Source: Polyangiaceae bacterium
Lineage (GTDB): Bacteria > Myxococcota_A > Polyangia > Polyangiales > Polyangiaceae
Direction of reading: 5' to 3'
Length of the DNA: 64,000 nt
NCBI GenBank assembly: GCA_016933275.1
Contig: JAFGBI010000225.1
Coordinates: 94,622-158,621 of the forward strand
The position numbers and the translations under genes were made by a program. Within the stretch, counting starts at the first letter, position 1. Every line of letters begins with the position of its first letter. The notes below the pieces were generated by a model that made no database searches, had not been told where the DNA came from, and was given only the letters and a program-made list of their open reading frames with translations. Shown here piece by piece: positions 3,887-21,664 of the stretch.

Positions 3887-4067
3887 CGGGCGCGGGCGCA
3901 GATACCGGCGCGGCACGCGATGCTTGCGGGGCGAGAGGCCGAACAAGATGACCCAACCCTGGCGCTGCGAGCACTTATCGAAGCGATCGTGCCGAGCAGA
4001 ACCAAAGGATGATACTACCCGAGCGCTGGCTAGGCGGCCAACCAGGAGTCGCGTAGCCTTGTCGGCG

Positions 4068-7000
4068 GTGCTGACGACTGGCTTGCTGGAACTCGGGACC
4101 GCGGCTCTCGCGCCGTTCGACCTCGGGGGGTTCGTGATCCAGGCCCTGCCCTCGAACGGGCTCGACCGGAGCCTGCACGCCCCCGTACTGATCGGGCTCG
4201 TCTTCCTCACCTTCTTCAAGGAGACCTACGGCTGGACCTACGCTGGCATCGTGGTGCCCGGGTACCTCGCCACGGTCTTCGTCGTGGCTCCCATCACGGG
4301 GATCCTCGTCTGCGTTGAGTCGGTGGTGGCCTACCTCCTCGCCGCCCTCGCCGGGCGCTGGATCCCGACGACCGGCGCCTGGTCGAGCTTCTTCGGGCGG
4401 GAGCGTTTCCTCCTCATCATCATCTGCGCCGTGCTCGTCCGCCTCGCCATGGAGGCGTCCTTCATCCCGCGATTGGTCGACGCGATGGAGCTGCCCCACT
4501 CACGGGAGCTCTACAGCATCGGTCTGGTGCTGATCCCCTTGGTCGCGAACAGCTTCTGGAACGCGGGGCTCATCTCGGCTCTCCCGCGCGTCGCGATCTC
4601 GACGGCGCTCACCGGGGCGACGGTGGTCTTCGTCCTGATGCCGTTCACCAACTTCACGGTCTCGCGGTTCCAGGTAGCCAACGAGAGTGTCTCGCTCCTG
4701 TTCCTCGAGACGCCGCACGCCTATGTCATCCTGATCCTCGGTTCGATCATCGCAGCTCGCGACAACGTCAACTACGGCTGGGACTACAACGGGATCCTCG
4801 TTCCCGCGCTGCTCGCGGTCGCGTGCTACCAACCGACCAAGCTCGTCACGACGGTGATCGAGGCGCTGATCGTGCTGTGGCTGTCCGAGTTCATCACCAA
4901 GCACGGCCCCTTGTCGCGAGTGCTGATGGTCGGGTCACGCCGCATGCTGCTCGCCTACTCCGTCGGCTTCGTCGTCAAGTGGGTGCTGGGACAAATCGCC
5001 CTCGTCGTCGCCCCTGACGTCGAGATGATCGACTACTTCGGCTTCGGGTACCTGCTGCCGACCCTCCTCGCCGTCAAGATGTGGAACTCGGACCGCATCG
5101 GCGCGACATTGATGCCGACGATCCAGGTAGCAGTCACCGCCTTTCTCGCGGGAAATATCCTGGCCTTCGGCCTGCGAACCATCTTCCCCCAGCAGACGTC
5201 GACCGAGTGGCGCAGCAACCCGAGCACCGCGACCCACGAAGTCTCTCTCGAACTGATGCTGGGAGACAGCGCACCTGCCCCGACGCCCGTGCGAGCCGCC
5301 TGGGGCAAGGTCACGCCAGGCCAACAGGCGCTCGCCATCCTTGAGGAGCTCGTGGGAGCGGAGGAGCCCAAGACGCAGCTGGCCGCCGAATGGAGCCCGG
5401 GGATCGCCCTCACGCGCCGCGACTCGGGTTGGTGGACGTTGGTGCCGCGCTCGACCGATCCGGACGCGGACGAGATCGCGCCACGCATCGCGTTCCGTTT
5501 GCCGGTGGGCAGAACCGCACCTTGGCTCGTGGTCGTCGATGCGGACAGGGTTGCGGCGCCCGCGATCGTCGTCGCCACCGAAGTCGCAGAACGAACGCGC
5601 GCACGTGCAGTCGTGGTCCGGTCGCGTCTGTCTTCGGTGAAGAGCCATGACGATGCCTTCCTCGCCGCCGCCGCGCCGCTGCTCGGGGTCGCGCACATCC
5701 TCCAGCTCACCTCGGGCGGCACGACGCCGAGCCTGGAGCTGTCCGGGAATCTCCCCGCCGGCCTCGATCTCGCCTGGGTCAGTGAGCTGCTCGGACACGA
5801 GGTGAGCCTCTCCTGGCGCGCGTCGGCGAACACCGACAGCCCCCTGGCCGAGGCGTTGGTCTTGCGCGTGCCCGACGGCATGTCCACTGCCGCGGCGGCC
5901 AAGATATGGGGCACGCCTCCCCTCGACGACTGGGAAGGGTCGCTCGCGGGTGCGCTCGGGGAGCGGATCGAGGCGCTCACCACCGTGGCGCCCGGCGCAT
6001 TTCGCCGGCCGACCGTCGAGGAGCTGCGCGTCTACGGCAAGGGCCTGCTCCCGCTCGTCCTTGAAGGGAGGGAGCCGACGCCATGGGCACGAGCGCTCGC
6101 CCTCCACCTCGGGTTCTCGTTCGCTCGCGTGGATGACGACGCAGGCTGGGTCCTCTACGAGCCGCCGAGCGCGGAGCGGCGTGGCGCGGCCACGGTCGCC
6201 GTGCAGGCAGCGGCCCGCGCGAAGGCCCGCGCCTCCGGCGGTCGTGTCCTCATCGAGATCGCAGCACCCCGCTGGGAATCCGGGGTGGTGGACGCCGGAT
6301 TCGCGCTGGCACGCGCGGTCCGTGCCGACGGCTTGCTCATCCACGGCGCGTTGCCGACGGCGGGGCCGAACCGGGTCGCGGACGTGCGCCATGCCAACGG
6401 CGCCCAATCGTATTTCCAGCTCGCTCACGAGATCTGGCTGCAGGGTGGAAACCACACGGCGGTCGTCTACGGGATCGCGCCAGGTCGCCAGGTGAGCGCC
6501 GACGTCGTCGTCGCCTTCGATCGCCCTCTCCCGTCAGCGACGGTAGGACCGGACTGGAGTCGCCGGGTCATCGACCCCCTGGTCGCTTCCGGACTCACCG
6601 TCAAGGCCGTCGACCGCAGCCTCGAGCTCGAACCGTTCATGGCCGCGACGGACCCTACCATGGGGTACTCGCGTCGGTTCGCGCCGGATCAGTCCCTCGT
6701 CGTGTGGCTGACGGAGCGAACCCGCGAGGAGCTCCTGGCGGGGCTGGACGATCGGATCGCGAGCGAGCGGCTCGAGCGGCTCGGGCGCACGTTCGCCACC
6801 GCCTCCGTCGCGGGGCGCGCCCTCGAGCTCGCGCGCTGTCTGCCGCAAGCCGTGCGGCCCGCGGCAGACTGTCCGAGATTGCCGAGCACATGCCAGAGCT
6901 CCCTTCTGGTGGACGGGCTCGTGGCCCATGCAGAGAACAACAACCCATTTGCCCTGCGCGCGGCCCTCGCCGGTCCCCACGGTTGCCACGTGGAGACGCT

Positions 7001-7178
7001 CCGTGACGTGGTGTCGGAGCGCGCCTGGGTGCTCGTGGCCGGAGGCGATCGAGTCGAGCTCGTACCCCTGCGCCATGGCGCCATCGCCGCGCCCACGCGC
7101 ACGGTGACTTCGCGACCAGAGGTGGAGGCAGCGATGGCGCTCGCCTTGCGCCGGATCCGGGTCGGGGTCGCGCCATGA
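4068..7178 (+). CDS. PgsC/CapC-like poly-gamma-glutamate-type membrane protein with two PgsC-like repeats and a large C-terminal soluble region
   Basis: Two PgsC-like modules (KETYGWTYAGIVVPGYLATVFVV.. and NVNYGWDYNGILVPALLAVACYQP..), each followed by several TM helices; ~550 aa soluble C-terminus. Probable GTG start at 4068 (track ORF starts at 3924). Confidence 0.7.
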   Translation: MLTTGLLELGTAALAPFDLGGFVIQALPSNGLDRSLHAPVLIGLVFLTFFKETYGWTYAGIVVPGYLATVFVVAPITGILVCVESVVAYLLAALAGRWIPTTGAWSSFFGRERFLLIIICAVLVRLAMEASFIPRLVDAMELPHSRELYSIGLVLIPLVANSFWNAGLISALPRVAISTALTGATVVFVLMPFTNFTVSRFQVANESVSLLFLETPHAYVILILGSIIAARDNVNYGWDYNGILVPALLAVACYQPTKLVTTVIEALIVLWLSEFITKHGPLSRVLMVGSRRMLLAYSVGFVVKWVLGQIALVVAPDVEMIDYFGFGYLLPTLLAVKMWNSDRIGATLMPTIQVAVTAFLAGNILAFGLRTIFPQQTSTEWRSNPSTATHEVSLELMLGDSAPAPTPVRAAWGKVTPGQQALAILEELVGAEEPKTQLAAEWSPGIALTRRDSGWWTLVPRSTDPDADEIAPRIAFRLPVGRTAPWLVVVDADRVAAPAIVVATEVAERTRARAVVVRSRLSSVKSHDDAFLAAAAPLLGVAHILQLTSGGTTPSLELSGNLPAGLDLAWVSELLGHEVSLSWRASANTDSPLAEALVLRVPDGMSTAAAAKIWGTPPLDDWEGSLAGALGERIEALTTVAPGAFRRPTVEELRVYGKGLLPLVLEGREPTPWARALALHLGFSFARVDDDAGWVLYEPPSAERRGAATVAVQAAARAKARASGGRVLIEIAAPRWESGVVDAGFALARAVRADGLLIHGALPTAGPNRVADVRHANGAQSYFQLAHEIWLQGGNHTAVVYGIAPGRQVSADVVVAFDRPLPSATVGPDWSRRVIDPLVASGLTVKAVDRSLELEPFMAATDPTMGYSRRFAPDQSLVVWLTERTREELLAGLDDRIASERLERLGRTFATASVAGRALELARCLPQAVRPAADCPRLPSTCQSSLLVDGLVAHAENNNPFALRAALAGPHGCHVETLRDVVSERAWVLVAGGDRVELVPLRHGAIAAPTRTVTSRPEVEAAMALALRRIRVGVAP

Positions 7179-9586
7179 CCCGCTGGCTCATCGTGGCCTT
7201 TCTGCTCGGCATGGTCGGGCTGGCCCTCGTGGGGATTCGATCCAGCAGCACTGGCAAGGGGCCGAGCGACGAGATCCTGAGCTACGAGCTGTCCGGCGGG
7301 CGGGGCGTAGCGGTAGGAGTCCCCGCGGGGATCCCGCGGGTGTTCCTCACCTCCTGGCTCGTGATCGCACCGGAGACCGCACACGACCCGACCCACCAAT
7401 ACTCCTACGGCATCGACATCGAGCTGATCGGCATCGACGGCGCGCTGGTGTCGCACGAGCGTGAGGATGTGGTGAGTCGGGTGAGCGGCGAGCCGGATTC
7501 ACCCATCGAGCTCGGTCGTTTCAGCGCCCGTCTCGTCGATTCCCCTGAGTGGGTGACCGACTCACGCTCGCGCACCGTCGAATTGAGCGCGCTCGCCGGC
7601 AAGCGAGGCTCGGTTCGCGTCCGTGCGACTGGTGACCGTCCGGTGCTCGTCCGCCTCGTCTACGCGGAGCCGCGATCGAGCCTCGCACGGAGGTTGCGGG
7701 AACGGACTCTGAACGCCCGAGAGCGCGCCCGCCGGGTGGATGGACGATCCGCGCTGGGTTTCGGTGATCTCACTGCGGACGCGCACGACCGCGCGCTGGG
7801 CGCCTGGGGACGCCGCCTCACGGCACGAGGCCGCGCGGGAACCGATTTCGTGAGTCGACGCCTCCTCGTCGGGGACTTCCGGGCCGACACCAACGATCCA
7901 CACGTGCCCGACCCGGTGGTCATCGGACCGGAGCGGCTCGCCGTCTTCAACGCGAACGGCCCCCTCACCCTGCGCGTCGAGGCGCCTCCCCGCACCCAGA
8001 TCATCGCCGTCGAGGGTACCGCCGAGCCGACTACCCAAGTGGTGGGCGACAGCGGGCTCGTGGACCTCACGCTCCTTGGTGCGGGCCCGCGCGCGGTGCG
8101 GATCAGCGCTGCCCCCCCGGTTGCCGCTCGCTTCGAGGCGAGCCTCGCGGACGCGGCGCGGCTCCTGGGGGTAGTGCCGAAGCGCCCCCGCGGCACCCTG
8201 CTCGAGGTTTCCCCGGCCGTGCTGCGACACCGCTACTTCGCGTTGGATCCGACGGGCCCGGTCCTGCTAGACGTGTTTCCGGGGCAGGACCGGGTGGGGT
8301 TGACCGTTCGGGGAGTGGCAGAAGGCGGGGGCCGGGATCCCCTGCCCGTGGAGCTGACGGTGAAGTGGATCGGAACGGGACCGATGCCCATCGAGGCCGT
8401 GGAGCGAACGAACCTCGATCGGTCCGTCATCGAGCGAATCGGCGAAACCGCGGTGAGCGAGCCGCTCATGGCCCTCTTGCGCGTCCCGAAGGGCGCGGCA
8501 CGCCTGGAGATCACCGGCTCGGCGGCGACCCTCGCGAGCTTCTGGACGCGGGAACCGGACGTGGCAGATCCGCTCCCCTTGCCCGGATACGACGTGGAGC
8601 TCGGACCCGAGCTCACGTTTCGCTACGCGCCGCGACAACCGCGCACCTGGGCCACGCTCCTCCCGGCCAACACGGGGGCGCTGGCGCGCGCGGGACGGGA
8701 GGTGCGAGTCGAGGTGTACCCGCGGATCGATCCCTTGCGGAGTCGTGCGGGGGCGTTGGCCTTCGATCGCCCGCTCCAGCCCCGCGGGGACCCGCTCTCC
8801 CGACGTCTGCTCACCCCGATCTGGTTTGGCGCGGGAGCTCCATTCGAGTCGCACTACCTGACGCCCCTCTACGAGAAGCCCACTCGGGTCACGGTCCCCG
8901 AGCGAGGGCTCAGGGCTGGCCGCCTGGCGATACTGTACCGAACCGAGGCGGAGCGGCTGGGCGAGGAGCTCACCCTGCTGGCGGGAGGCGAGGTGGTGGC
9001 GAAGCGCGAGATCCTGTCTCGAAATGGGGAGCTCCAGGTGCTCCTCACCCCGGGCAGCCGGGAGCTCCAGCTGGTGGGGCTCGGCGAGGGTGGGTTTGGC
9101 CTGGTCGATGCGCCGCCAACGAGCGGGGGCGAGGTATTCCGCTCCCAGCGGGTCGTAGCCCTCATGCCGGGCAGCGAGGTATCCTTCGGCTTCGACTGGC
9201 GCGCAGGAGAGCTCGGGAGCCTGCGGCTATTCTTCGTGAGCGAGGGCGGCCCGGCGCCGTATCGAGTGGGGTTCATGATCGACCGGGGCGACGTAGGGCG
9301 GGCGGAGAGCAGGCTCCTCCGCCGGATCACGGAGCTCGAGGGAACCATCGGGGGCCGCACGGGGACGAGGGGCCGCGGCTTGCTCTGGGAGGCCGGCAGC
9401 CGACCGGGTGAGGGTCGCTGGTCCGATGCCGTGGGATCGGCGCGGATCGCCATTGGCGACGATCTCGGCCCCGGCCGACACGAGCTCGTCCTCCGCGGGC
9501 TTCCGGTTCAGGGAGCCGCTCCGCTCTGGGTGCGTGGCGTGGTCGTCGGTGCGTTCGAGAGCCCCGCGGAGGAGGCGGGGCCGTGA
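7175..9586 (+). CDS. Membrane-anchored periplasmic protein in pgs-like operon
   Basis: ATGA overlap with upstream gene; N-terminal TM MTRWLIVAFLLGMVGLALVGIRSS; rest beta-rich, no recognised family. Confidence 0.6.
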   Translation: MTRWLIVAFLLGMVGLALVGIRSSSTGKGPSDEILSYELSGGRGVAVGVPAGIPRVFLTSWLVIAPETAHDPTHQYSYGIDIELIGIDGALVSHEREDVVSRVSGEPDSPIELGRFSARLVDSPEWVTDSRSRTVELSALAGKRGSVRVRATGDRPVLVRLVYAEPRSSLARRLRERTLNARERARRVDGRSALGFGDLTADAHDRALGAWGRRLTARGRAGTDFVSRRLLVGDFRADTNDPHVPDPVVIGPERLAVFNANGPLTLRVEAPPRTQIIAVEGTAEPTTQVVGDSGLVDLTLLGAGPRAVRISAAPPVAARFEASLADAARLLGVVPKRPRGTLLEVSPAVLRHRYFALDPTGPVLLDVFPGQDRVGLTVRGVAEGGGRDPLPVELTVKWIGTGPMPIEAVERTNLDRSVIERIGETAVSEPLMALLRVPKGAARLEITGSAATLASFWTREPDVADPLPLPGYDVELGPELTFRYAPRQPRTWATLLPANTGALARAGREVRVEVYPRIDPLRSRAGALAFDRPLQPRGDPLSRRLLTPIWFGAGAPFESHYLTPLYEKPTRVTVPERGLRAGRLAILYRTEAERLGEELTLLAGGEVVAKREILSRNGELQVLLTPGSRELQLVGLGEGGFGLVDAPPTSGGEVFRSQRVVALMPGSEVSFGFDWRAGELGSLRLFFVSEGGPAPYRVGFMIDRGDVGRAESRLLRRITELEGTIGGRTGTRGRGLLWEAGSRPGEGRWSDAVGSARIAIGDDLGPGRHELVLRGLPVQGAAPLWVRGVVVGAFESPAEEAGP

Positions 9587-10680
9587 CCCAACGGCGGCGT
9601 CGCTTGGTCCCGACCGAGGGCCGATCGGCTCGCCGGCGGCGACGGTGTCCTCCGAGGCGAAGGGGCGTCCCGATGGATATCCGCGCCCGCGACCGACGCT
9701 CGACGGCCCATTTCCTCCCCACGATCATCCTGACCGCCGCGTTGACACCGGCCCTCCTGCCCGCCTGCCGCTGCGAACGGGCAGAGGACCACGAGTCGTT
9801 GCCTGGCCCCCCGGCGAGCTCGTCGGCGACACCGACAGGCCCGACGATCCCTCTCCTCGCTACCGTTCGGGACCTCCGGAGCCGCGGCAAGGCAGAGTAT
9901 CGAGCACCCACGGAGGACGAGGCGAAGGAGTACCGCGTGTGGGTCGGCGCGATCGCCAAGGCGGCTTGGACGGACCGGCTCCCCACGCACCCGGCGCCGG
10001 AGGGCTTCTCGGGACGCCTGGGGAACGCCGGGGCGTTGTGGCTCCTTCAAGAGCAGCCGACGCGCAAGCGCGGCGCCGGGGTCGTGGTGATTCGGCCGAG
10101 CCGGGGGACATCCGTATTGGTCGAAGCGCCACACACCTTCTTCGACGAGGGGACGCTCGAGATCGCGCTGTCTATCTTCCACGGCATCGGAGCGCGCGGC
10201 CTGTTGGCGAACACCATGCATCGCTACGTGACCGTGCCCGAGACCCTACGCGGCGACAAGGACGAGGTCAGGAACGCGGTCAGCGATTTGGCGCACGAAG
10301 ACCGCACCTATTTCTCCGCCGCGCATCGCAGCCTGCTCGGCGTCGAGGCGCTGACCACGCTCCAGATCCACGGCTTCGCGGACGCCACTGCGCCCGGCGT
10401 GATGGCGGTGGTCAGCGCGGCGCGGACGACCGGAGATGCCCTCGCGGTGGCGCGGGCGTTGCGCGACGCGCTCGGCGACGATGTGGTGCGGGTCTACCCC
10501 GACGAGATCGATGTCCTGGGCGGCACCACCAACGTTCAAGCGAAGGCGTCACGGGAGCTCGGCCTCCCCTTCATCCACGTCGAGCTCTCGCGTTCGTTGC
10601 GCGATTCCGTCCGCGAGGACCCCGCGCTGGCGGCTCGGCTCGTCGAGGCATTTCGGACCCTGGAAGGGGCTGCTCGGTGA
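9583..10680 (+). CDS. Lipoprotein/periplasmic protein, possible amide hydrolase, sharing a domain with the PgsC-like C-terminus
   Basis: GTGA overlap with upstream gene; signal/lipobox-like TIILTAALTPALLPACRCE; motif DLAHEDRTYFSAAHR parallels DVRHANGAQSYFQLAHE in the PgsC-like protein. Confidence 0.6.
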   Translation: MTQRRRRLVPTEGRSARRRRRCPPRRRGVPMDIRARDRRSTAHFLPTIILTAALTPALLPACRCERAEDHESLPGPPASSSATPTGPTIPLLATVRDLRSRGKAEYRAPTEDEAKEYRVWVGAIAKAAWTDRLPTHPAPEGFSGRLGNAGALWLLQEQPTRKRGAGVVVIRPSRGTSVLVEAPHTFFDEGTLEIALSIFHGIGARGLLANTMHRYVTVPETLRGDKDEVRNAVSDLAHEDRTYFSAAHRSLLGVEALTTLQIHGFADATAPGVMAVVSAARTTGDALAVARALRDALGDDVVRVYPDEIDVLGGTTNVQAKASRELGLPFIHVELSRSLRDSVREDPALAARLVEAFRTLEGAAR

Positions 10681-10682
10681 GG

Positions 10683-13600
10683 ATGGGGGTTCGGCCTGAG
10701 AAACGCAGCGCCGAGCCGCGCGTCGAGATCGCTTGGGCCCGGCCACTTCCTGCCCTGGTGGCGTTCCTATTGCTGCTCCTCTCCCCGAGACACGCCGGAG
10801 CGACGCCGCCCGATCTCGCGTGGGTCCCGCCTTCCGAGCTGAGGCTGGTCGAGCTCTCGCATCCGACCCCTTCCGCCACCCTCGAAGAGGTGACAAACCT
10901 CGCGGAAGCGATCCCAATCGGGAAGGGAGAGGCGCTCCTCGTTCCCTCAGCGGGCGGCGAGCTCGTCCGCCTCGAAGGCGACGAGCTCGAGGTAGGGTTC
11001 GGCACGGGGATCGGCCCAACCCCCGACGCGGTGGTGTGGCCGCCGGCAAACGATCCGGGGCGCGTGCGCGAGATCCGCGTCCCGACCTGGGGGATGACCC
11101 AGTGCGTGGTCGTCCGCGGTCGCGACCACCGGCCCGTGACCGCCGTGGTCCGCGTCGCGGCGCGACGCGCGGATCCGATGCGATGGTTCCGCACCGACCA
11201 GGAGATCGCCGCTTGGTTGCGCGACCCCACGGCACCAACGCCGACCCTCGCCAATCCACTCGAGGATGCGCAGTCGATCGTAGACTTCCTCGCGGCCGCT
11301 CGGGATTCGTTCGAAGCGGCTGCGGGCCTCCCAGCGGTCCGGTGGCTTCTGCTCGAGCGATGGCTCGCTGACTCGGCCCGCTTTCGCCCACTCGACGCGC
11401 CGTTCTTCGCCAGCGGCGTGCCGCAGGTCACCGGGGGGACCGTCCCGCCGCCGAGCTCGCTCCGCCCCGTCGGACCGCGAGCAGCCCAGCGCATCGTCGA
11501 GACTGGACGATCGCTCCTTATTGACGCAAACGGCCTCGACGTCATCACGTTCCAGCTCGAGACGCGCGCCGATCGAGGATCCGTGGTTCGGATCCGGCAA
11601 GGGGAGGCCCTCGTCGCCGAGCTTCGCACGGATGTGCCCCAGCTCGCCCGAGACCGCGCCCGCTTCACCGCGCCGAGGGGAGTTCGGGCGGTCCCCTCCC
11701 AGGGTAGGGTCCGGCTCGAGGTCGCGGTGGGGACGGTGCGCGTCACGGTTCGGGGCTACGCGCAGCGCAATTCCGCGGGAGCGCCGTCGCTGCGCGAACG
11801 GAAGCGCCTGCTCCGACGGGCGGCCGCTGCGGAGCAAACCTCGGGGGCGAGCTCGAACACGTTGCGGGTAGTGGCGGCCCTCGCCAATGCCGAGGCGAAC
11901 CAGACGCGAAACGCGGTGACGGATGTGCTCGCACTGGCCGCGGATCCCGGAGTCCCGGCTGGTATGAGGGCGCTCCTGGTCCATGACGCCATCCGCAACG
12001 GGCTGGAGCTGTCGACGCTGGGGGAGCGGCTCGGCAAGCTCGCGGCAGCGACCTCGGGACTCCCCGCGACGCAGTCCGGTCCACTGCGGCGTTCGGCGCT
12101 CGAGTTCGTCGCCAGGGCGACCACGACCGTGCCCGATGACCTTCGCCCCCGAGATCTCTCCGGATTTCTGGCCGGCTCGGTCGAGCCTTCGGAGGCCGAA
12201 GAGATCCGGTTGTTGGTCGAGCTCCTGCTCCCGCCCCGGGATCGCGCCCGTTCGCTGACGACCGCGCGTGCCGAGGAGAGGGCGGCACGCTCGGCCAGGA
12301 GCCCCAACGTCACGAACCTCGCGGACCTCGCGTGGCGCCGGATTGCCCCATGGTCAAACCTCAAGGCAGGAGACAAAAGCCCGACGGTGCAGCGATTCGC
12401 CGCGGTCTTTGCGGAGCCGGACTCGAACGGACGGTGCTCGTGGAACGGCGCGGCGGGGTTGCGCTGGCTGGCGCTCGGCGAGGACGCCGAGGTCGACGTC
12501 AGCGAACGTGGCGGCACCCACACCCAGGTGGCGCTGGTGGGAGATCCTTCCGAGCCGCCCCATGATTCGCTGGTCGAGATCGAGGGGCAGCCCATGGCGG
12601 TCCACGGCGGCGCGAACCTCGGGAGTCGCATCGCCGTGCGTCCCGGCCGGCGTCTGTTCTCGCTCCGAAGCGGCGCCGGCGTGCTCGCCAAGATCCCGTC
12701 GGAGGGCGAGATCGACTGCGAACGGCTCCGCGACGAGGTCACCTGGGTGGTGGTGCGAGGGACGGCCGCCTTCCCGCTCCCCGGGGGTCCGGCGCTCACG
12801 GTGGCGAACGTCCTCGTGTCTCCGGAGACCCTCACCGGTCCGTCCGAGGTCGAGATCGAGGTCGGCGCCACGACCTACCGCGGGTGGGTTCACCCTCCGG
12901 CGACCGGCGGTCTCGAGGTGCCGATCCCACCGGACGCCACCCTGATGCGAGTTCGCGCGTCCCAGCCGCTCATGGTCCGGGTGCTCATGAGGATGCACCG
13001 TTGGCCGGAGCCCCCGCCTCCGAAAGCCGCGCCATCGACCGTGACGCCGCCGGCCGAGGCGGAGCTGATCGAGCAGATCCGTCAGGCCACGCGCGCGCTC
13101 CGACGGGCCACGGGAGCGCCGGGACGGATCGCTGCGTGGCGGGACCGAGCTCGGGCGCTGGAGGCCCTCACGTTCCTGCGCTACGCCGCGGCCGACCGCG
13201 GCCGACTGCTCGCGGCCGGCGGGGAACCCGACCCCGCGCCCGCCGCGCTCGGAGCCCCCCTCGCGATCGACCTCCTGCCCGGCAGCGGCGACGTCGAGCC
13301 GCTGGGTTCGCTACCGCTCATCCCGCCGCTCCCCCAGCCCAAGAACCCTGCCCCGCTGCGGGATGTGCTCAACGCCCGTGATCGCGGGGTGGAGCCGCGG
13401 ATCCTGCTCGAGAAGCTCGCCCCGAGCGCCGAGCGCTCGAACGCTGTCGATGCCCTGCTGCTCGCGGTCCTCGCCGAGGATCTCGGGGAGTCGAGCCTGG
13501 CGGCGCATGCCTATGAGCGGATCGGCCGCGCCCACGATTCCCCGCGTGCCCTCGCGCTCGCCAGCGGATTGAACGCCGATGCGGCGGTGGCCAACGACGA

Positions 13601-15602
13601 TCTCAAGGCAACCCTCGATGCCTACGTGCTCGCGCGGGAGGTCGCCGAACGGGACCCCCGCGCGGCGGGCGTGTTGGCGCGGCTCCAGGACTCGATGGAT
13701 TGGGAGGCCGTGGGCGCCGACGAGACGGCCGGCACCGCGCTCGTCGAGGCGTACCGCTACACGGATCCCGAGACAGCGCCGCTCGGCGTTCGGGTGCGAT
13801 CCGCGTTGCTCGATGGTCCCAGCTATGCGGTCCTAAGCTTCGGCGATCCCATCACTACGACGGTGCGCGCCGGTTCGAGCTACCGTGTCGATGCCCTGTG
13901 TCACGCGGTGGAGGGCCCGCACGAGGGCTGCCCGGTTCGGCTCGAGCTCGATGGCAAACCCACGCGCTGCCGGACGCTCGAAGACGATGGGGTGTCGTCG
14001 CCGGCCGGCGAGGACCAGCCGTCGCCTCCGCTGGAGATCGGGCTGGTCGGGTCGGACCGAACGATAGCCCACGAGCATTCCTGCTGGGTCGAGGCCCCGG
14101 AGATGGACGGACGCCTCGTGGTCACGCCGCCTTCGGATCGGGAGGTGCTGGCCTGGGTGGCCGTGCGCAGGTTCACCGAACAGGGACTGGAGCCCGTTAC
14201 CATCGTCGGACGGTGGTCGGAGGCCACGCGCGAGATGCCGTTCCGGATCCTCGTACGCGGCCCGACCGTGCTCCGGGTATCGGTCCGGGGCGAGAGTGGC
14301 ATCCTGCAGAACCTCGAGCGAGAGATCGCGATCGCCAACGCGGCCGGCGAAGCGGCCACGATACCTCTCGATCAGCGCTCCGACGACTACGCATGGCGGC
14401 GACCCGGTCGGGAACCGGTCGGGGTGGCCTCCACGAACTACGTCGTGCTCACGGAGCCCGGGTTGCACTCGGTGACGCTGGCGCCCGACCGCGGGCGAGC
14501 ATTCCTGAGGGTCGAGGTCGCCCGCGCGCGTCGAACACCCCGTCCCCGAGCGTCGGCGGCGAAGGACTCCGTCACCCCACCACTCGCGGGGACGAACGGC
14601 GGGCTGCCGCCCGTAGTGATACCCGCCGTCGGTTGGGATCCGGAGCTCGGGATGCTCACCCTCGGCGCGGAGGCCAGCTTCGTCGTGGCCGATCTGTCGG
14701 AAGGAGATCGGGATCCACAGTCGGACTACTTCCAACTCACGCTCGCTGCCCGGCGCTCCTTCGACGCGCTCCCGACCTCCCTGAGGTTCGCGCTGCTCGG
14801 TCGCGCCCGCCACGGACCGGAGACCATGGGAACCGAAGCGAGGATCGGGTTCAGACGGACCGCGTGGACCCCTGCGGCCTTCGCGTTCGGACGCCTCCTC
14901 GCGCAGCGTTTCCCCTCGGTGACCGCGGCCGGCTTCTATGGCCTCGTCGGCGTTTCGCACGCGGAGCGGCTCGCTCGTGACCTCAACCTGGTGTCGCTGG
15001 GCTCGGCCGCGCTGCGCGTGGTGGACCGCCGGGCAGCAGACCTCGACGAGGTCGACCCCGGGATCTACGCTCCCTACTCGGCGGCCCACCCGACATCCCT
15101 CGACCTGCAGGTCCGGCTGGAGGAGAGGCCGTTCGTCGACCTGCGGGGGCGGGTCGGCTCGATCGCTCGTTTCCTCCCCGAGAAGCGGACCCTCGATCGA
15201 GTCGAGGGCTTCGTGCAGGGCACGCTCCTCGGTGGCAACGGGCTCGCCCCAGAGATCGACCTGGAGCTCAGCGCCAGCATCCGCCCCACCACGGTCGCGC
15301 GCGACGAGGCCTTCATCCGCTATGTGGCGGCCTCTTCCGTGGGTTTTTCTGCCTGGGCGAGCGACTCCAGCTACCTCGCGCTGCTCGGCTCCCTGACCTT
15401 CTTCGCTGACGCGCCGCCGACCAACGCGCGAGGTAGCGGGGTCGCGGGGATGATCGGGCTCAGCTACGACCATGTCTCGCGCCGCGGCGTACGGGATCTC
15501 GACGCGGGAGCGCGGTCCTTCCCGGACCGACGGGAGGAGGGCCATGCCCCACCGAACCGAATCCCGCCGCGCGGCCATCCATTCTGGGAGCCCTCTCGGT
15601 GA
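10683..15602 (+). CDS. Very large (~1639 aa) secreted protein with predicted C-terminal outer-membrane beta-barrel
   Basis: In-frame ATG at 10683 (the track ORF from 9408 is an artefactual extension through upstream genes). Signal peptide LPALVAFLLLLLSPRHAGA; helical/TPR-like middle; alternating-strand C-terminus (YFQLTLAARRSF.. VGLVGVSHAERLARDLNLVSLGSAALRVV..). Confidence 0.6.
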   Translation: MGVRPEKRSAEPRVEIAWARPLPALVAFLLLLLSPRHAGATPPDLAWVPPSELRLVELSHPTPSATLEEVTNLAEAIPIGKGEALLVPSAGGELVRLEGDELEVGFGTGIGPTPDAVVWPPANDPGRVREIRVPTWGMTQCVVVRGRDHRPVTAVVRVAARRADPMRWFRTDQEIAAWLRDPTAPTPTLANPLEDAQSIVDFLAAARDSFEAAAGLPAVRWLLLERWLADSARFRPLDAPFFASGVPQVTGGTVPPPSSLRPVGPRAAQRIVETGRSLLIDANGLDVITFQLETRADRGSVVRIRQGEALVAELRTDVPQLARDRARFTAPRGVRAVPSQGRVRLEVAVGTVRVTVRGYAQRNSAGAPSLRERKRLLRRAAAAEQTSGASSNTLRVVAALANAEANQTRNAVTDVLALAADPGVPAGMRALLVHDAIRNGLELSTLGERLGKLAAATSGLPATQSGPLRRSALEFVARATTTVPDDLRPRDLSGFLAGSVEPSEAEEIRLLVELLLPPRDRARSLTTARAEERAARSARSPNVTNLADLAWRRIAPWSNLKAGDKSPTVQRFAAVFAEPDSNGRCSWNGAAGLRWLALGEDAEVDVSERGGTHTQVALVGDPSEPPHDSLVEIEGQPMAVHGGANLGSRIAVRPGRRLFSLRSGAGVLAKIPSEGEIDCERLRDEVTWVVVRGTAAFPLPGGPALTVANVLVSPETLTGPSEVEIEVGATTYRGWVHPPATGGLEVPIPPDATLMRVRASQPLMVRVLMRMHRWPEPPPPKAAPSTVTPPAEAELIEQIRQATRALRRATGAPGRIAAWRDRARALEALTFLRYAAADRGRLLAAGGEPDPAPAALGAPLAIDLLPGSGDVEPLGSLPLIPPLPQPKNPAPLRDVLNARDRGVEPRILLEKLAPSAERSNAVDALLLAVLAEDLGESSLAAHAYERIGRAHDSPRALALASGLNADAAVANDDLKATLDAYVLAREVAERDPRAAGVLARLQDSMDWEAVGADETAGTALVEAYRYTDPETAPLGVRVRSALLDGPSYAVLSFGDPITTTVRAGSSYRVDALCHAVEGPHEGCPVRLELDGKPTRCRTLEDDGVSSPAGEDQPSPPLEIGLVGSDRTIAHEHSCWVEAPEMDGRLVVTPPSDREVLAWVAVRRFTEQGLEPVTIVGRWSEATREMPFRILVRGPTVLRVSVRGESGILQNLEREIAIANAAGEAATIPLDQRSDDYAWRRPGREPVGVASTNYVVLTEPGLHSVTLAPDRGRAFLRVEVARARRTPRPRASAAKDSVTPPLAGTNGGLPPVVIPAVGWDPELGMLTLGAEASFVVADLSEGDRDPQSDYFQLTLAARRSFDALPTSLRFALLGRARHGPETMGTEARIGFRRTAWTPAAFAFGRLLAQRFPSVTAAGFYGLVGVSHAERLARDLNLVSLGSAALRVVDRRAADLDEVDPGIYAPYSAAHPTSLDLQVRLEERPFVDLRGRVGSIARFLPEKRTLDRVEGFVQGTLLGGNGLAPEIDLELSASIRPTTVARDEAFIRYVAASSVGFSAWASDSSYLALLGSLTFFADAPPTNARGSGVAGMIGLSYDHVSRRGVRDLDAGARSFPDRREEGHAPPNRIPPRGHPFWEPSR

Positions 15603-18600
15603 CCCCGAGCAGCCCGGCCGAGGCCGTGCTTCGCAGACTGGAGGGTGCGGTGCCGCCCCTCCAGGTGAGGCTGCGGCGCCCGACCCTCGCGGCGCTCGCG
15701 GGACGGGTGCTCGCCCTGACCGCGGGCACCGTGGACAGCCCGGGCCAGCTGGTCAACACCTTGCTCCGAGCCGCAGCGGAGGCCCTGACCCGACGTGACC
15801 AGCTCGAGCAACGCAGTCAGACGATCGCCCGAGAAGCGAGCGCCGCCCTCAGCGACGTCGAGCGGTCGCGGCACTTGGTCGAGCTCCTCGGCACCATCGT
15901 CGGCGACCACGTCGAGTTGCTCCGAGACCTCGGGGCGATGCGGCGCTGGCTCGACCACGAGGCGATCCTCGATCGTATCGGGGGGCTCGCCGCGGCCGAA
16001 CTCGACGAGGTCGAAGTCGCCTGCTTGGCCGCGGCGGGCCTGGTGACGGAGCTCGATTCCGCTGCGGTGATGGATCTGGATCCCGCCGCGACCGTCACGC
16101 TCGCGCTGAACCTCGCGAAGCGCGCCCAGGTGGAGGTCGTGGTCGTGGCCGCCCTGCGGGCAGCCACGGCCATCCTCGGTCGCCTTCCGGGACCCGAACG
16201 CCTGATGGTGCTCGGCCTCGTCGGGTTCCGCGAGCTGTGCGGCTGGGTCGACGACGAACGGCGGGAGCCTTGGATACGGGCGGCCGCCCTGGAGGCGGCC
16301 GTCAAGGCCGCCCCGAACGACGCGCGCACGATCCTCGCCAGCGCCCTCGCACAGCGCGAGGGTCGCGACGGGATGATCGTGCGGAGCGCCGCGTTGCGGC
16401 TCACGGCGACCGCCGAGTCCGGCGGCGCGTGGCAACACGGGGTCGCCTGGACGGCGGCTGAGGATCCGAGCGAGCACGTGCGCCAAACCCTGGCCTGCTC
16501 GCTCGTCACCATCGGCGGCCGCAGAGCCGCGGAGCATCTGACCCATCTCGCAACCCAGGATCCGGCGGAGCGGGTCCGCGCGTTCGCCCTGCGGGAGCTT
16601 TACCGAGGAGCAGCCCGGCGGCAGGAACTCGCCAGAGCAGCCTTCGGCTGCACGCTCACCCTGCTCGACGCCGCCGCGACCGAGCCCGACAAGGTCGGTC
16701 GCCTCATCGTCCTCGTGATGGCGCTCGAGTTACCGCGGATCGCGTGCGGCGTCGGGGCCCCGTTGCCCGCCGCCGAGTTCGTCGAGCCGCTCAGCGTCCT
16801 GGTCCAAAAGGCGAGCCTCGATCCGGATCTCGTGGAGCGCCTCGCCGCGGTCCTTCGCGCCATGGAGGTCGCCGCTCATCCGGAGCTCGAGGACATGCGG
16901 CGGTTGTTCGCCGGCGAGCTCGCCGATCTGGTCGAGAACCATCGGGTCGTCGTCGAGCTCTTCCCCGAGACGCCGACGGGACAGATCGAGAAGGCCCTCG
17001 CGGTGGCGGCTCGCGACGACCTGTCCGTCTCGCTCGATCCGCTTCGTCCCGGGCGGTTCCGCCTGGTGCGGGGGGAGCCGCAGCGCTTTCGGTGGTGGCG
17101 CTGGCTCTTCGAGCTCAGGACACCCGAACCCGACAAGCGCCAGGCGTTCCTGCACAGCTACGCCGCCGCCGACCGCTCCCAATTCGTCGTGCCTCCGTTC
17201 GGCATGGGAGAGGTGACCCCGACCCGGGTCCCGGGGATGCGCCGCATGATCGCGGCCATCAAGAGCTGGGGGGTGTTTCTGCCCCGCGTGGACGACTTCT
17301 TCGCGGCGCTCTCTGGGCGCCAACGTGAGCGAAGGGTGGTAACGACCCTCGGCACCCTGGTGATCGCAGCTCCGCCCACGGCCTGGCAGCGCTGGAAGGC
17401 GCGCGGGGTGCTCGTCCTGCGCTACGTCAAGCTGGCACGCCTGCGTGAGGTAGCCCTCGCGGCCAGCGACGCCAAGACTCAAAGATCCTATGTCGGCGCC
17501 TTTCGCGACCTCGGCTTCGCGGTCCACGTCGAGAACACATCGGGCACGATCGGAGGCGTCAACTACGAGCTCGGAACGACCCTCACCGGACGGTATCTCT
17601 CGATGCTCGCGGGTCTGCCAACCTTCATCGATCCGATCGTGAACGAGTTTCTGCGGCCGACTGGGAGCTCGGCGCTCCATCTCTCGCTGGTCGCCTGGAC
17701 GGCCTTCGCGTGGATGATCGTGCGCGCGGCGTGGATCCGCGCCCGCATCGAGCATTCCCGCCGGGCCGTGCCGCTGACCGTGGGCGGCTGGGGCAGCCGT
17801 GGCAAGAGCGGTTCGGAGCGGATCAAGTCGGCGCTCTTCCACGCGCTTCGCTTCGATGTCGTGGTCAAGACCACCGGTTGCGAGGCGATGTTCATCCACG
17901 CGCGCCGGGACCGCCCCGCCCGGGAGATCTTCGTCTATCGACCGTACGGCAAGGCTACGATCTGGGAGCAACGCGCGCTCTTGGGATACGCGGAATCGCT
18001 CCACGCGCAGGTCTTCATGTGGGAGTGCATGGCGCTCCGGCCGCAATTCGTCGAGCTGTTGGAGAGCGAGTGGATGCGTGACGACGTGACGACGCTGACC
18101 AACGCCTATCCCGACCACGAAGACGTGATGGGGCCGTCCGGCGAAGACGTGGCTCGGGTCATCGCGACGTTCATGCCGCACGGCGGGACGGTCCTCACCG
18201 CCGAACAGGAGCTGCTGCCGATCATCGACGAGTCGGCGCGACGGCGAGGGAACCGCTTCGTGCCCGTCCCGGACCTCGAGGCGCTCCTGCTCCCCGCCGA
18301 CATGCTCGCGAGGTACCCCTACGCCGAGCACCCGCGCAACATCGCGCTGGCGCTGGCCCTCGCGGAGCATTTCGGCGTCGACCGCGAGTGGGCGCTCGCC
18401 AAGATGGCCGACCACGTGGTCCCCGATCTCGGCGTCCTCAAGACCTACCCCACGGTGGTCCATCGTGGACGCAGCCTCACCTTCATGAATGGCATGAGCG
18501 CCAACGAACGCGCGGGGTTCATGTCGAACTGGGTCCGGCTTGAGCTGGACAAGATCGACCCGGACGAGCACGCCGGCACCGTGACCGTGGCGGTGGTGAA

Positions 18601-19789
18601 CAACCGCGCCGACCGTGTCCCGCGCTCCCGCGTCTTCGCGGAGATCCTGACGCGCGACGTCACATTCGACCACGTCGTCGTCATCGGCAGCAACCTGAGC
18701 GGGATGGCGCAATTCCTCGAGGAGTCTCTCGACCGGTGGCTCGCCACCGTGAGCGTCGGATCCGAGACGAAGGAGACCGCGCACGGGAACCTCCACGAGC
18801 TCATCAAGCGCCTCCGCGTCGTTCACCACCCGAAGACGCTCGGGCGGCGCCTCGACCTGATCCTCGAGGCCGCGGGTGTCCCCGACGAGACGCGTGGTGC
18901 GCGGGTCGGCGTGCTCGTCGGGGTCGCCACCGCCCCCGGCGAGGCGGACGCCGAATCCGTCGCGCGGGACGCCCTCGCGACCGGAGATGCTGCGAGCGAA
19001 GCGAACCAGGACGCTCTCCCCCACCTCTTACGCCTCGTCCGCGAGTATCGCAGCGCCCACGAGCAGCTCTCTCGGGTCCACTGCGCGATCGAGAAGGGGG
19101 ATCCCGCGCAGGCGGACCGCCTGCTCCGCGCATGGCTCCGCGCCCTCGCGCTCGCCCGCAACACCCAGGTGACGGACTACCATGCCACTGGGGACCAGAT
19201 CATCGACCACGTGGCGCGCCAGGTCCCTCCCGGTCACGACGCGCGGGTCCTCGGATGCCAGAACATCAAGGGGACCGGCCTCGACTTCGCCTACCGCTGG
19301 GTGAGTGTCGGTGACGTGGACACGGCGTTGCGCCGGCTCGAATCGGAGCCCGGACGCCGCGCGGACGCCATCCGCTGGCTGCGCTCGCACGGCGACTACG
19401 GCCTATGCGACTCGAGGATGGCTCGCGCCAGGGTGGCCGCGATCCGCGACGACGAGGCGACCGAGTGGGATCCCTTTCGCGCCGATCTGAACGCCCTCGT
19501 CGCCCACCTCGACCAGGTGGTAGCGGCGAGACTCACCCGGCTCGCCGCCGCTCCGAAGCGGTCCTGGTTCGCAAAGGCGCTCGACACGATCGAGCCGTTC
19601 GTCGACCACCTCGACTCGATCCGCCGCCACCGCACCTCGCGCCGGATCATGCAGGATCTCTTCGCCCAACGCGTCAGCCAGAGCCGGGCCGCGGTGCTCC
19701 TCCGCGAGCTCACCGATCGCAGCAAGGGCGGATGGCTCGCGAAGGACTTCGAGAACTGGAAGAAGCGGAGGCGGAAGCGGCGAGCGTGA
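15599..19789 (+). CDS. PgsB/CapB-like Mur-ligase-family synthetase with ~700-aa N-terminal HEAT-like repeat region
   Basis: P-loop and PgsB motifs: GGWGSRGKSGSERIKSALFHALRFDVVVKTTGCEAMFIH; TTLTNAYPDHEDVMGPSGEDVARVI; VVNNRADRVPRSRVFAEIL. GTGA overlap with upstream gene. Confidence 0.75.
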   Translation: MTPSSPAEAVLRRLEGAVPPLQVRLRRPTLAALAGRVLALTAGTVDSPGQLVNTLLRAAAEALTRRDQLEQRSQTIAREASAALSDVERSRHLVELLGTIVGDHVELLRDLGAMRRWLDHEAILDRIGGLAAAELDEVEVACLAAAGLVTELDSAAVMDLDPAATVTLALNLAKRAQVEVVVVAALRAATAILGRLPGPERLMVLGLVGFRELCGWVDDERREPWIRAAALEAAVKAAPNDARTILASALAQREGRDGMIVRSAALRLTATAESGGAWQHGVAWTAAEDPSEHVRQTLACSLVTIGGRRAAEHLTHLATQDPAERVRAFALRELYRGAARRQELARAAFGCTLTLLDAAATEPDKVGRLIVLVMALELPRIACGVGAPLPAAEFVEPLSVLVQKASLDPDLVERLAAVLRAMEVAAHPELEDMRRLFAGELADLVENHRVVVELFPETPTGQIEKALAVAARDDLSVSLDPLRPGRFRLVRGEPQRFRWWRWLFELRTPEPDKRQAFLHSYAAADRSQFVVPPFGMGEVTPTRVPGMRRMIAAIKSWGVFLPRVDDFFAALSGRQRERRVVTTLGTLVIAAPPTAWQRWKARGVLVLRYVKLARLREVALAASDAKTQRSYVGAFRDLGFAVHVENTSGTIGGVNYELGTTLTGRYLSMLAGLPTFIDPIVNEFLRPTGSSALHLSLVAWTAFAWMIVRAAWIRARIEHSRRAVPLTVGGWGSRGKSGSERIKSALFHALRFDVVVKTTGCEAMFIHARRDRPAREIFVYRPYGKATIWEQRALLGYAESLHAQVFMWECMALRPQFVELLESEWMRDDVTTLTNAYPDHEDVMGPSGEDVARVIATFMPHGGTVLTAEQELLPIIDESARRRGNRFVPVPDLEALLLPADMLARYPYAEHPRNIALALALAEHFGVDREWALAKMADHVVPDLGVLKTYPTVVHRGRSLTFMNGMSANERAGFMSNWVRLELDKIDPDEHAGTVTVAVVNNRADRVPRSRVFAEILTRDVTFDHVVVIGSNLSGMAQFLEESLDRWLATVSVGSETKETAHGNLHELIKRLRVVHHPKTLGRRLDLILEAAGVPDETRGARVGVLVGVATAPGEADAESVARDALATGDAASEANQDALPHLLRLVREYRSAHEQLSRVHCAIEKGDPAQADRLLRAWLRALALARNTQVTDYHATGDQIIDHVARQVPPGHDARVLGCQNIKGTGLDFAYRWVSVGDVDTALRRLESEPGRRADAIRWLRSHGDYGLCDSRMARARVAAIRDDEATEWDPFRADLNALVAHLDQVVAARLTRLAAAPKRSWFAKALDTIEPFVDHLDSIRRHRTSRRIMQDLFAQRVSQSRAAVLLRELTDRSKGGWLAKDFENWKKRRRKRRA

Positions 19790-20248: not shown

Positions 20249-21664
20249 GTGACCGCGCGGAAGCTGGGGCTGTGGTCGGGCGTGGGGCTGACCATGGCGG
20301 ACATGGTCGGCGTGGGCGTGCTGACCACCGCGGGGTTCATGGCGCTCGACCTGTCACCGCGGCTCATCCTTCTCGACTGGCTGCTCGGTGGGCTGCTCGC
20401 CGTGTGCGGCTCGCTGGCGTACGCGCGCCTCGCCTGGATGGTGCCACGATCCGGCGGCGAGTATCGGTACCTCTCGAGCATGCTCCATCCCGCGGTCGGG
20501 TACTTCGCCGGGTGGACATCCCTCCTCGTCGGCTTCTCCGTCCCCGTGGCGTTGGCGGCCCTCGGCGCGGGTGCGTTCGGGGAAACCGTGCTGGTCGGCG
20601 CCGACGGTCGCCTCATCGCCGCCGCGCTGATCGTCGGCGTCACCATCGCCCACGCCGTCGGGTTGCGGGCCGCGAAATGGACGCAGGACCTGCTCGCGGC
20701 GACGAAGGCGGTGCTCATCGTCGCCTTCATCGCCCTGGGCATCACCTTCGGGACCAATCGGCTGCCCGAGTGGACCCCTGCTGATCCCGAGGCTGGCTTC
20801 CCCCTGCGCGCGTTCTTCACGTCGCTCATCTTCATCACGTTCTGCTACACGGGCTGGAACGCTGCGACCTACGCCTCCGAGGAGTTCGAAAACCCGCGCC
20901 GCGACGTGCCACGCGCGATGCTCGTCGGTTGCCTCATCGTCACGGGGCTCTACCTGGTCGTAAACTGGGTGTTCGTCACCAACCTGACCCAGAGCGACTT
21001 GTCGCAGTGGATCAAGGGCGACACCGACCGCGTGACGCTGGCGCACCTGGTGGTGAAAAACCTCCTCGGGTCGAGGGCTGCCGTCGCGATGTCCATCGTG
21101 GTCATGATCGCGCTCACCTCGGCGATCAGCGCGATGACCCTGATCGGGCCACGGGTGTACGCCGCCATGGCGGCCGACCATTTCCTCCCCTCCGTGTTGG
21201 CCGCCCGCGCCGGGAAGCCGCCGATCGGCTCGTTGGTGCTGCAATGCTCACTGGCAACGAGCCTGGTGTTCCTCTCGGGGTTCCGCGAGCTGCTCAACAA
21301 CGTGGGCTCGATCCTGGCCATCGTGTCTGCGATCACGGTGCTCTCGCTCTTTCGGCGGCGGCGGTGGCGACGGGGCGAACGTCCGCCGCTCTCGGCGATG
21401 ATCGGAGCCTTGGCCTACGCGGGCATGTCCGCGTGGATGGTCTGGTTCTCGATCCAGTCCTCCAAGCGGGTCGACGTGATCGGTTTCGGCGTCCCGACGG
21501 TCGTGCTGTGGATGATCGGGATCTTCGTGGTGGCGATGGCAGCCTACGGCCTGACACGCGCGCTTCGTCCCGATGCCGGCGCGGCCGCGCCCCGCCGCAA
21601 CTCCGATCGTTCAAACGAAGGGTTCGTGGCCGTACGAGCGTCGATGATCCCTCCTGGCGAGTAG
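20249..21664 (+). CDS. APC-superfamily amino acid permease
   Basis: ~12 TM; LGLWSGVGLTMADMVGVGVLTTAGFMALDLSPRLILLDWLLGGLLAVCGSLAYARLAWMVPRSGGEYRYL. Confidence 0.8.
   Translation: MTARKLGLWSGVGLTMADMVGVGVLTTAGFMALDLSPRLILLDWLLGGLLAVCGSLAYARLAWMVPRSGGEYRYLSSMLHPAVGYFAGWTSLLVGFSVPVALAALGAGAFGETVLVGADGRLIAAALIVGVTIAHAVGLRAAKWTQDLLAATKAVLIVAFIALGITFGTNRLPEWTPADPEAGFPLRAFFTSLIFITFCYTGWNAATYASEEFENPRRDVPRAMLVGCLIVTGLYLVVNWVFVTNLTQSDLSQWIKGDTDRVTLAHLVVKNLLGSRAAVAMSIVVMIALTSAISAMTLIGPRVYAAMAADHFLPSVLAARAGKPPIGSLVLQCSLATSLVFLSGFRELLNNVGSILAIVSAITVLSLFRRRRWRRGERPPLSAMIGALAYAGMSAWMVWFSIQSSKRVDVIGFGVPTVVLWMIGIFVVAMAAYGLTRALRPDAGAAAPRRNSDRSNEGFVAVRASMIPPGE

What the first reader, a model, noticed from the sequence alone, without database searches (positions are those of the whole stretch)
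4068..19789. Non-canonical Gram-negative poly-gamma-glutamate-type polymer operon lacking PgsA but with a giant barrel protein
Five same-strand genes are joined by 4-nt overlaps or a 2-nt gap (7175/7178, 9583/9586, 10680/10683, 15599/15602). The first is PgsC/CapC-like and the last PgsB/CapB-like (Mur ligase family). No CapA/PgsA-type metallophosphatase is present. The middle genes are a periplasmic anchored protein, a possible hydrolase lipoprotein and a ~1639-aa protein with a barrel-like C-terminus. Inference: a synthesis-plus-export machine for a poly-amino-acid polymer across two membranes.
Basis: partly seen in the sequence, partly recalled or inferred. Interest (0 to 1): 0.82.

Follow-up and report, generated by a model that had tools for sequence, protein, structure and literature searches.

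The report
Giant two-membrane polyglutamate-type synthesis operon
A five-gene block that is kept together and in the same order across many myxobacterial families probably makes a nylon-like amino-acid polymer inside the cell and passes it through both cell membranes; it is a large, apparently undescribed relative of the machinery that makes the poly-glutamate slime and capsules of Bacillus.

Summary
Five same-strand ORFs (4068-19789) abut or overlap as stated. Gene 1 carries two tandem CapC domains (PF14102) and gene 5 carries a PgsB-type Mur-ligase domain with its motifs intact. No PgsA/CapA is linked.

Lacking PgsA is not new: the same genome has an ordinary PgsA-less pgsB-pgsC-pgsW locus. 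New is the giant conserved architecture with a candidate outer-membrane exit. Best reading: a polyamide counterpart of synthase-dependent exopolysaccharide export. Shown: homology, synteny. Inferred: polymer, export, barrel. Distribution outside Myxococcota is untested.

The parts
4068..7178 (+). g1: tandem-CapC protein (1036 aa), about 400 aa of transmembrane CapC region plus a soluble C-terminal half
   Evidence: PF14102 8e-44 with two stretches; hydropathy segments at aa 58-372; 43-44% identical orthologues in L029 and L032
4191..4577 (+). first CapC domain of g1
   Evidence: PF14102 2.1e-24
4740..5093 (+). second CapC domain of g1
   Evidence: PF14102 6.4e-21
5940..6740 (+). g3-like domain of g1 (aa 625-891) without the catalytic motifs of g3; a weaker second copy may precede it
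   Evidence: hhalign with the g3 profile 96.7%, 4.5e-10; wider profiles 98.9%, 2.9e-17, and 42.8%, 2.5e-4 for the preceding copy; motif scan of 35 homologues
7175..9586 (+). g2: periplasmic protein with an N-terminal membrane segment, no known family
   Evidence: one hydrophobic segment at aa 1-25; no Pfam or NCBIfam hit; orthologues in the same place
9583..10680 (+). g3: lipoprotein (possible start ATG 9673), probable zinc amidase/carboxypeptidase fold
   Evidence: invariant PHxxxD, HR, HG and HxE positions in 18 homologues; AF2 pLDDT 54.6, pTM 0.60; Foldseek 3A9L 7e-5, 2ODF 2e-5, phage poly-gamma-glutamate hydrolase 1.7e-5
10683..15602 (+). g4: secreted 1639-aa protein, beta-rich C-terminal region, candidate outer-membrane exporter
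   Evidence: signal segment aa 14-34; beta periodicity z 2-4.5 from aa 1055 to about 1564; weak LapB/TPR match E about 0.5
14505..15602 (+). C-terminal candidate barrel of g4 (aa 1275-1639)
   Evidence: AF2 all-beta but pLDDT 32; the best Foldseek matches are nearly all porins, low weight
15599..19789 (+). g5: giant PgsB: HEAT repeats, PgsB ligase domain, insert, C-terminal extension (1396 aa)
   Evidence: TIGR04012 1.2e-60; HEAT_2 1.3e-4 and alphaRep structures down to 3e-8; 8-member alignment
17666..18733 (+). PgsB/Mur-ligase-type domain of g5 with the conserved motifs
   Evidence: motif alignment with canonical PgsB

Best explanation
The five genes encode one envelope-spanning machine that polymerises an amino acid (most likely glutamate, through gamma-amide bonds) at the cytoplasmic face and exports the chain across both membranes. 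g5 is the ATP-dependent amide ligase; its HEAT repeats and extra domains probably hold partners. g1, with two CapC units, forms the inner-membrane part of the synthase and conduit; its fused, catalytically dead hydrolase-like domain may bind the emerging chain. g2 is an anchored periplasmic adaptor. g3, a lipoprotein amidase, trims or frees the chain, as hydrolases do in exopolysaccharide export systems. g4 spans the periplasm and ends in an outer-membrane barrel through which the polymer leaves. Shown: homologies, retained ligase motifs, domain duplication and fusion, conservation of gene order. Inferred: substrate, polymer, direction of transport, barrel, enzymatic activity of g3.
For: PgsB and CapC homology with ligase motifs intact. 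Same five-gene order in relatives across the phylum; where g4 is too diverged to detect, one open frame of 1316-1387 codons fills its place in 5 of 5 loci checked. In five genomes where the operon is broken up, g1 and g2 are still adjacent (5 of 5), g4 was seen further along in 2, and g5 is retained about 30-200 kb away. g3 fold match to zinc amidases including poly-gamma-glutamate hydrolase. g1 soluble domain related to g3. Secretion or anchor segments on g2, g3, g4. Beta-periodicity of g4. Precedent: a Cetobacterium pgsB-pgsC-pgsW locus is preceded by a gene annotated succinylglutamate desuccinylase, a family that also appears among the g3 fold matches.
Against: No direct evidence of polymer or export. 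g5 and g1 fall below the curated PgsB and PgsC equivalog cut-offs and the g5 ligase sits on a very long branch (4.58 changes per site), so the substrate may have changed. g3 and PF05908 give no significant profile match and g3 has no Pfam hit; the g3 model rests on two sequences with pLDDT 54.6. The barrel model is unusable by confidence. No amino-acid racemase or gamma-glutamyltransferase was noticed in the operon.
Confidence: 0.55

Rival explanations
1. The machine does not make a free polymer but attaches one or a few amino acids (a gamma-linked tail) to an envelope component such as a lipid, lipoprotein, peptidoglycan or polysaccharide; g3 edits the tail and g4 is a surface or scaffold protein.
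For: g5 is a deep separate clade of the PgsB family. In at least three genomes (G000, G009, G033) it coexists with an ordinary PgsB, so it may have another product. g5 and g1 fail the equivalog cut-offs for PgsB and PgsC.
Against: A CapC-type partner, here duplicated, is so far tied to polymer synthesis and export (general knowledge of the family); the ligase motifs of PgsB are all kept.
Confidence: 0.2
2. It makes poly-gamma-glutamate that stays in the periplasm or at the inner membrane (osmotic or metal buffering); g4 is a periplasmic or outer-membrane-attached beta protein rather than a pore.
For: The barrel is unproven; the beta-periodicity of g4 begins at aa 1055, before the predicted barrel, so part of it must be a soluble beta domain.
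Against: The extreme C-terminus is long-stranded and beta-amphipathic, and even the poor model resembles porins rather than soluble folds.
Confidence: 0.15
3. An ordinary poly-gamma-glutamate synthase that happens to lie next to three unrelated envelope genes.
For: CapC and PgsB are the only genes with family hits.
Against: The five-gene order is kept across families and beyond the class, and g1 itself carries a g3-derived domain.
Confidence: 0.03

Closest known systems
PgsBCA / CapBCA poly-gamma-glutamate synthase (Bacillus)
   Same: Mur-ligase-type PgsB with its motifs, CapC membrane protein, adjacent genes
   Different: No PgsA/CapA; PgsB fused to HEAT repeats and extra domains (1396 aa against about 400); CapC duplicated and fused to a hydrolase-like domain; three extra envelope proteins; both homologues below the equivalog cut-offs
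PgsA-less pgsB-pgsC-pgsW loci (TIGR04332; Fusobacteriota, and contig C356 of this same genome)
   Same: PgsB and PgsC without PgsA in a Gram-negative; in Cetobacterium a desuccinylase-family gene stands just before pgsB
   Different: No PgsW homologue (hhalign of g3 with TIGR04332 members 0.3%); giant fused proteins; own five-gene order
PghP / zinc amidase-carboxypeptidase fold (PF05908, N-formylglutamate amidohydrolase, AstE/AspA)
   Same: Predicted fold of g3; order of the His/Asp/Glu motifs
   Different: No Pfam match; profile comparison with PF05908 not significant; the g1 copy has lost the motifs
Synthase-dependent exopolysaccharide secretion (Pga, Pel, alginate; PMC9384988, PMC12141448)
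   Same: Plan: inner-membrane synthase, periplasmic hydrolase, large periplasmic scaffold with a candidate barrel
   Different: Ligase instead of glycosyltransferase; no sequence homology detected; barrel and TPR only weakly supported
Tandem-CapC PgsC of Chroococcidiopsis plasmid pCHRO.01
   Same: Two CapC stretches in one protein
   Different: 333 aa without the soluble hydrolase-like half; pgsB of ordinary size beside it

Membership tests
PgsBCA/CapBCA poly-gamma-glutamate synthase | PgsB/CapB Mur-ligase-type domain with P-loop and catalytic motifs | tested here: met
   TIGR04012 1.2e-60; motifs aligned with canonical PgsB
PgsBCA/CapBCA poly-gamma-glutamate synthase | PgsB and PgsC equivalog score cut-offs | tested here: not met
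   205.2 against 222.7 bits and 72.9 against 96.45 bits
PgsBCA/CapBCA poly-gamma-glutamate synthase | CapC membrane protein (PF14102) | tested here: met
   8e-44, two stretches
PgsBCA/CapBCA poly-gamma-glutamate synthase | PgsA/CapA (PF09587) in the operon | tested here: not met
   only an unlinked copy in the genome; no hit in g1-g5
PgsBCA/CapBCA poly-gamma-glutamate synthase | product is poly-gamma-glutamate | not testable with these tools
   needs chemical analysis
PgsA-less pgsB-pgsC-pgsW system | PgsW (TIGR04332) beside pgsB and pgsC | tested here: not met
   single genome copy lies in the other locus; g3 is unrelated by profile
PghP-type poly-gamma-glutamate hydrolase | PF05908 match or significant profile match | tested here: not met
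   no Pfam hit; hhalign with four PF05908 members 2%
PghP-type poly-gamma-glutamate hydrolase | zinc amidase/carboxypeptidase fold with His-Asp/Glu-His and catalytic Glu | tested here: inconclusive
   Foldseek to 3A9L 7e-5, prob 1.00 and to a phage hydrolase 1.7e-5, from a two-sequence model with pLDDT 54.6; candidate ligands invariant in 18 homologues
Synthase-dependent exopolysaccharide secretion system | glycosyltransferase synthase in the inner membrane | tested here: not met
   the operon's synthase is a Mur-ligase-type PgsB; no other family found
Synthase-dependent exopolysaccharide secretion system | TPR scaffold plus outer-membrane beta-barrel | tested here: inconclusive
   weak TPR-type hits E about 0.5; beta-periodicity z 2-4.5; porin matches on a pLDDT 32 model

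The most novel reading that the evidence does not exclude
A dedicated two-membrane secretion machine for a poly-amino acid, conserved over a whole phylum: the polyamide counterpart of the Pga/Pel/alginate exopolysaccharide exporters, with its own outer-membrane porin and with a dead hydrolase-like domain built into the CapC channel.
Probability: 0.45. Interest if true: 0.8.

Novelty: new variant of a known kind. Interest (0 to 1): 0.62.

Why it matters
How Gram-negative bacteria move poly-glutamate-type polymers across the outer membrane is, to my knowledge, unknown; the searches of the paper library made here returned nothing on it. This operon names a candidate porin, adaptor and hydrolase that travel with the synthase across Myxococcota, so the question becomes testable by gene removal. 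It also shows a large elaborated branch of the PgsB family, and a CapC fused to a relative of a polymer-cleaving enzyme, which suggests how the chain is handled as it leaves the membrane.

Tried and rejected
PDB sequence searches with profiles of g1, g2, g3 and g4 gave no credible relative, and for g5 only HEAT repeats. Pfam and NCBIfam gave nothing for g2, g3, g4. I tested whether g3 is PgsW (TIGR04332): no. I tested whether PF05908 relates to g3 by profile: motif regions align in register but without significance. Promoter and terminator scans gave nothing above chance. Paper searches found no description of this operon. Of the two flanking genes checked, the divergent upstream one recurs in 4 loci and the downstream amino-acid permease in none.
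Full report
OBSERVATION. The five ORFs exist exactly as described, with 4-nt overlaps at 7175/7178, 9583/9586 and 15599/15602 and a 2-nt gap at 10680/10683. The start of g1 could be TTG 4059, which has an AGGAG 10 nt upstream, instead of GTG 4068. g3 may start at ATG 9673, which gives a cleaner lipoprotein signal; its relative in L029 starts right at the end of g2.

THE TWO RECOGNISABLE GENES. g1 has two tandem CapC domains (PF14102, total 8e-44) and scores 72.9 bits against the PgsC equivalog (cut-off 96.45). g5 matches the PgsB equivalog at aa 703-1042 with 1.2e-60 and 205 bits (cut-off 222.7). The conspicuous motifs of canonical PgsB are kept: GxRGKS, KTTG, ECMAL, TN..DH..VMGP, EH..N, NG..AN, N.R.DR..R and, after an insert of about 160 residues, NI.G.G. 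The N-terminal part holds HEAT repeats (HEAT_2 1.3e-4; alphaRep structures down to 3e-8). So g5 is an elaborated ligase that is probably active, not a remnant.

THE SAME GENOME HAS AN ORDINARY SYSTEM. At contig C356 there is a canonical PgsB (455 bits), a PgsC (115 bits) and a TIGR04332 poly-gamma-glutamate system protein (PgsW; 320 bits). A Cetobacterium plasmid shows the same pgsB-pgsC-pgsW order. Fusobacterium nucleatum is cited as the first Gram-negative shown to produce polyglutamate (Candela et al. 2009, in the reference list of PMC4497714). Therefore 'lacks PgsA' does not by itself make a locus new. The only CapA-type gene found in the genome is unlinked.

CONSERVATION. tblastn found the whole operon in order in two relatives at once. 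With iterated profiles on the neighbourhoods of about 50 loci, the order g1-g2-g3-g4-g5 recurs in relatives from the same family, other families of the order, other orders of the class and elsewhere in the phylum. Many other loci are cut by contig ends. In five further loci g4 is not detected by profile, but one uninterrupted frame of 1316-1387 codons fills its slot. Giant-PgsB matches occur in about 38 of 386 genomes drawn over the phylum and in some 34 of 186 drawn from the order. In five genomes of two genera (G169, G170, G171, G019; G097) g5 lies about 30 to 200 kb from g1-g2 (distances read from the coordinates). There g1 and g2 stay adjacent, g4 appears further along in two of the stretches fetched, and g3 was not found in them. 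A tree of the ligase domain puts all giant PgsB on one side of a long, fully supported branch (4.58 changes per site, 100/100) from 15 ordinary PgsB; the single exception in the group table is a giant PgsB whose frame is split (L033) and which my length rule had mislabelled. Long-branch effects are possible for the three plasmid rows.

g3. No family hit. The AF2 model (two sequences, pLDDT 54.6, pTM 0.60, best part about residues 185-290 of the modelled stretch) matches solved zinc metallopeptidases and amidases: a putative metallopeptidase 3B2Y, Atu2144 (2ODF; N-formylglutamate amidohydrolase family by my own knowledge), carboxypeptidases, succinylglutamate desuccinylase, and the phage poly-gamma-glutamate hydrolase 3A9L at 7e-5 with probability 1.00. 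In the viral library the third match is a Bacillus phage poly-gamma-glutamate hydrolase. The conserved pattern over 18 homologues is PHxxxDxxT, HR, QxHG and FxHxE, which is in the order expected of such enzymes; PghP is described as a zinc metallopeptidase related to carboxypeptidase A (PMC4497714). Profile comparison with PF05908 is not significant. I call the fold probable and the substrate inferred.

g1 SOLUBLE HALF. The g3 profile matches g1 at aa 625-891 (hhalign 96.7%, 4.5e-10; 98.9%, 2.9e-17 with wider profiles, plus a weaker copy before it at 42.8%, 2.5e-4). In the motif scan the PHxxxDxGT-type motif is found in 1 of 35 homologues and QxHGF in none, so these are probably binding or structural domains. 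To my knowledge a CapC fused to a hydrolase-fold domain is undescribed. Tandem CapC alone is not unique: a cyanobacterial plasmid PgsC has two stretches too.

g4 AND g2. g4 has a signal segment, weak TPR-type similarity around aa 920-985 (LapB, E about 0.5), and beta-periodicity from aa 1055 to about 1564 (z 2-4.5 in most windows), stronger than in the other four proteins. The barrel model is of unusable confidence (pLDDT 32); that almost all of its best Foldseek matches are outer-membrane porins is only a hint. g2 is anchored or secreted and has no known relative.

MECHANISM. I favour a synthase-dependent polyamide export machine: ligase (g5), CapC2 conduit (g1), adaptor (g2), trimming lipoprotein (g3), outer-membrane exit (g4). 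Known exopolysaccharide systems pair a synthase, a periplasmic hydrolase or modifier, and a TPR-porin (for example PgaA in PMC9384988 and PelBC in PMC12141448; titles and abstracts only). The resemblance is of plan, not of sequence. The main rival is that the ligase modifies another envelope component; coexistence with an ordinary PgsB in the same genome (G000, G009, G033) keeps this open.

VERDICT. A real, conserved and apparently undescribed variant of the poly-gamma-glutamate synthase kind. What the polymer is and whether it is exported must be tested at the bench.

Noticed in passing
window 1478-4093 (-): Divergently transcribed neighbour of g1, a membrane protein I read as CHASE2-sensor-like but with no Pfam hit; homologues lie next to the g1 side in three or four relatives (L032, L109, L082, possibly L124), so it may regulate the operon.
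   Followed up: partly
window 29450-30877 (+): Reverse transcriptase (RVT_1 2e-14); best PADLOC matches are generic RT and unknown-group (UG26, UG4) defence-type RTs.
   Followed up: partly
L037 4141-8688 (+), just upstream of the ordinary pgsB at G000:C356: 1515-residue open frame with FecR, VIT and VWA domains and TPR similarity directly before the canonical pgsB-pgsC-pgsW locus; a possible partner of that locus.
   Followed up: no
window 26910-29225 (+): 771-aa protein with four STIG1-like cysteine-rich stretches (PF04885 1e-22), a family named from plants.
   Followed up: no
window 20249-21664 (+): APC-family amino-acid permease about 460 nt after g5 on the same strand; no homologue seen in the fetched neighbourhoods of relatives, so probably not part of the machine.
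   Followed up: partly
L081 16028-17107 (-): An extra g3-like gene directly upstream of g1 in one relative (G086), with partly changed motifs.
   Followed up: no
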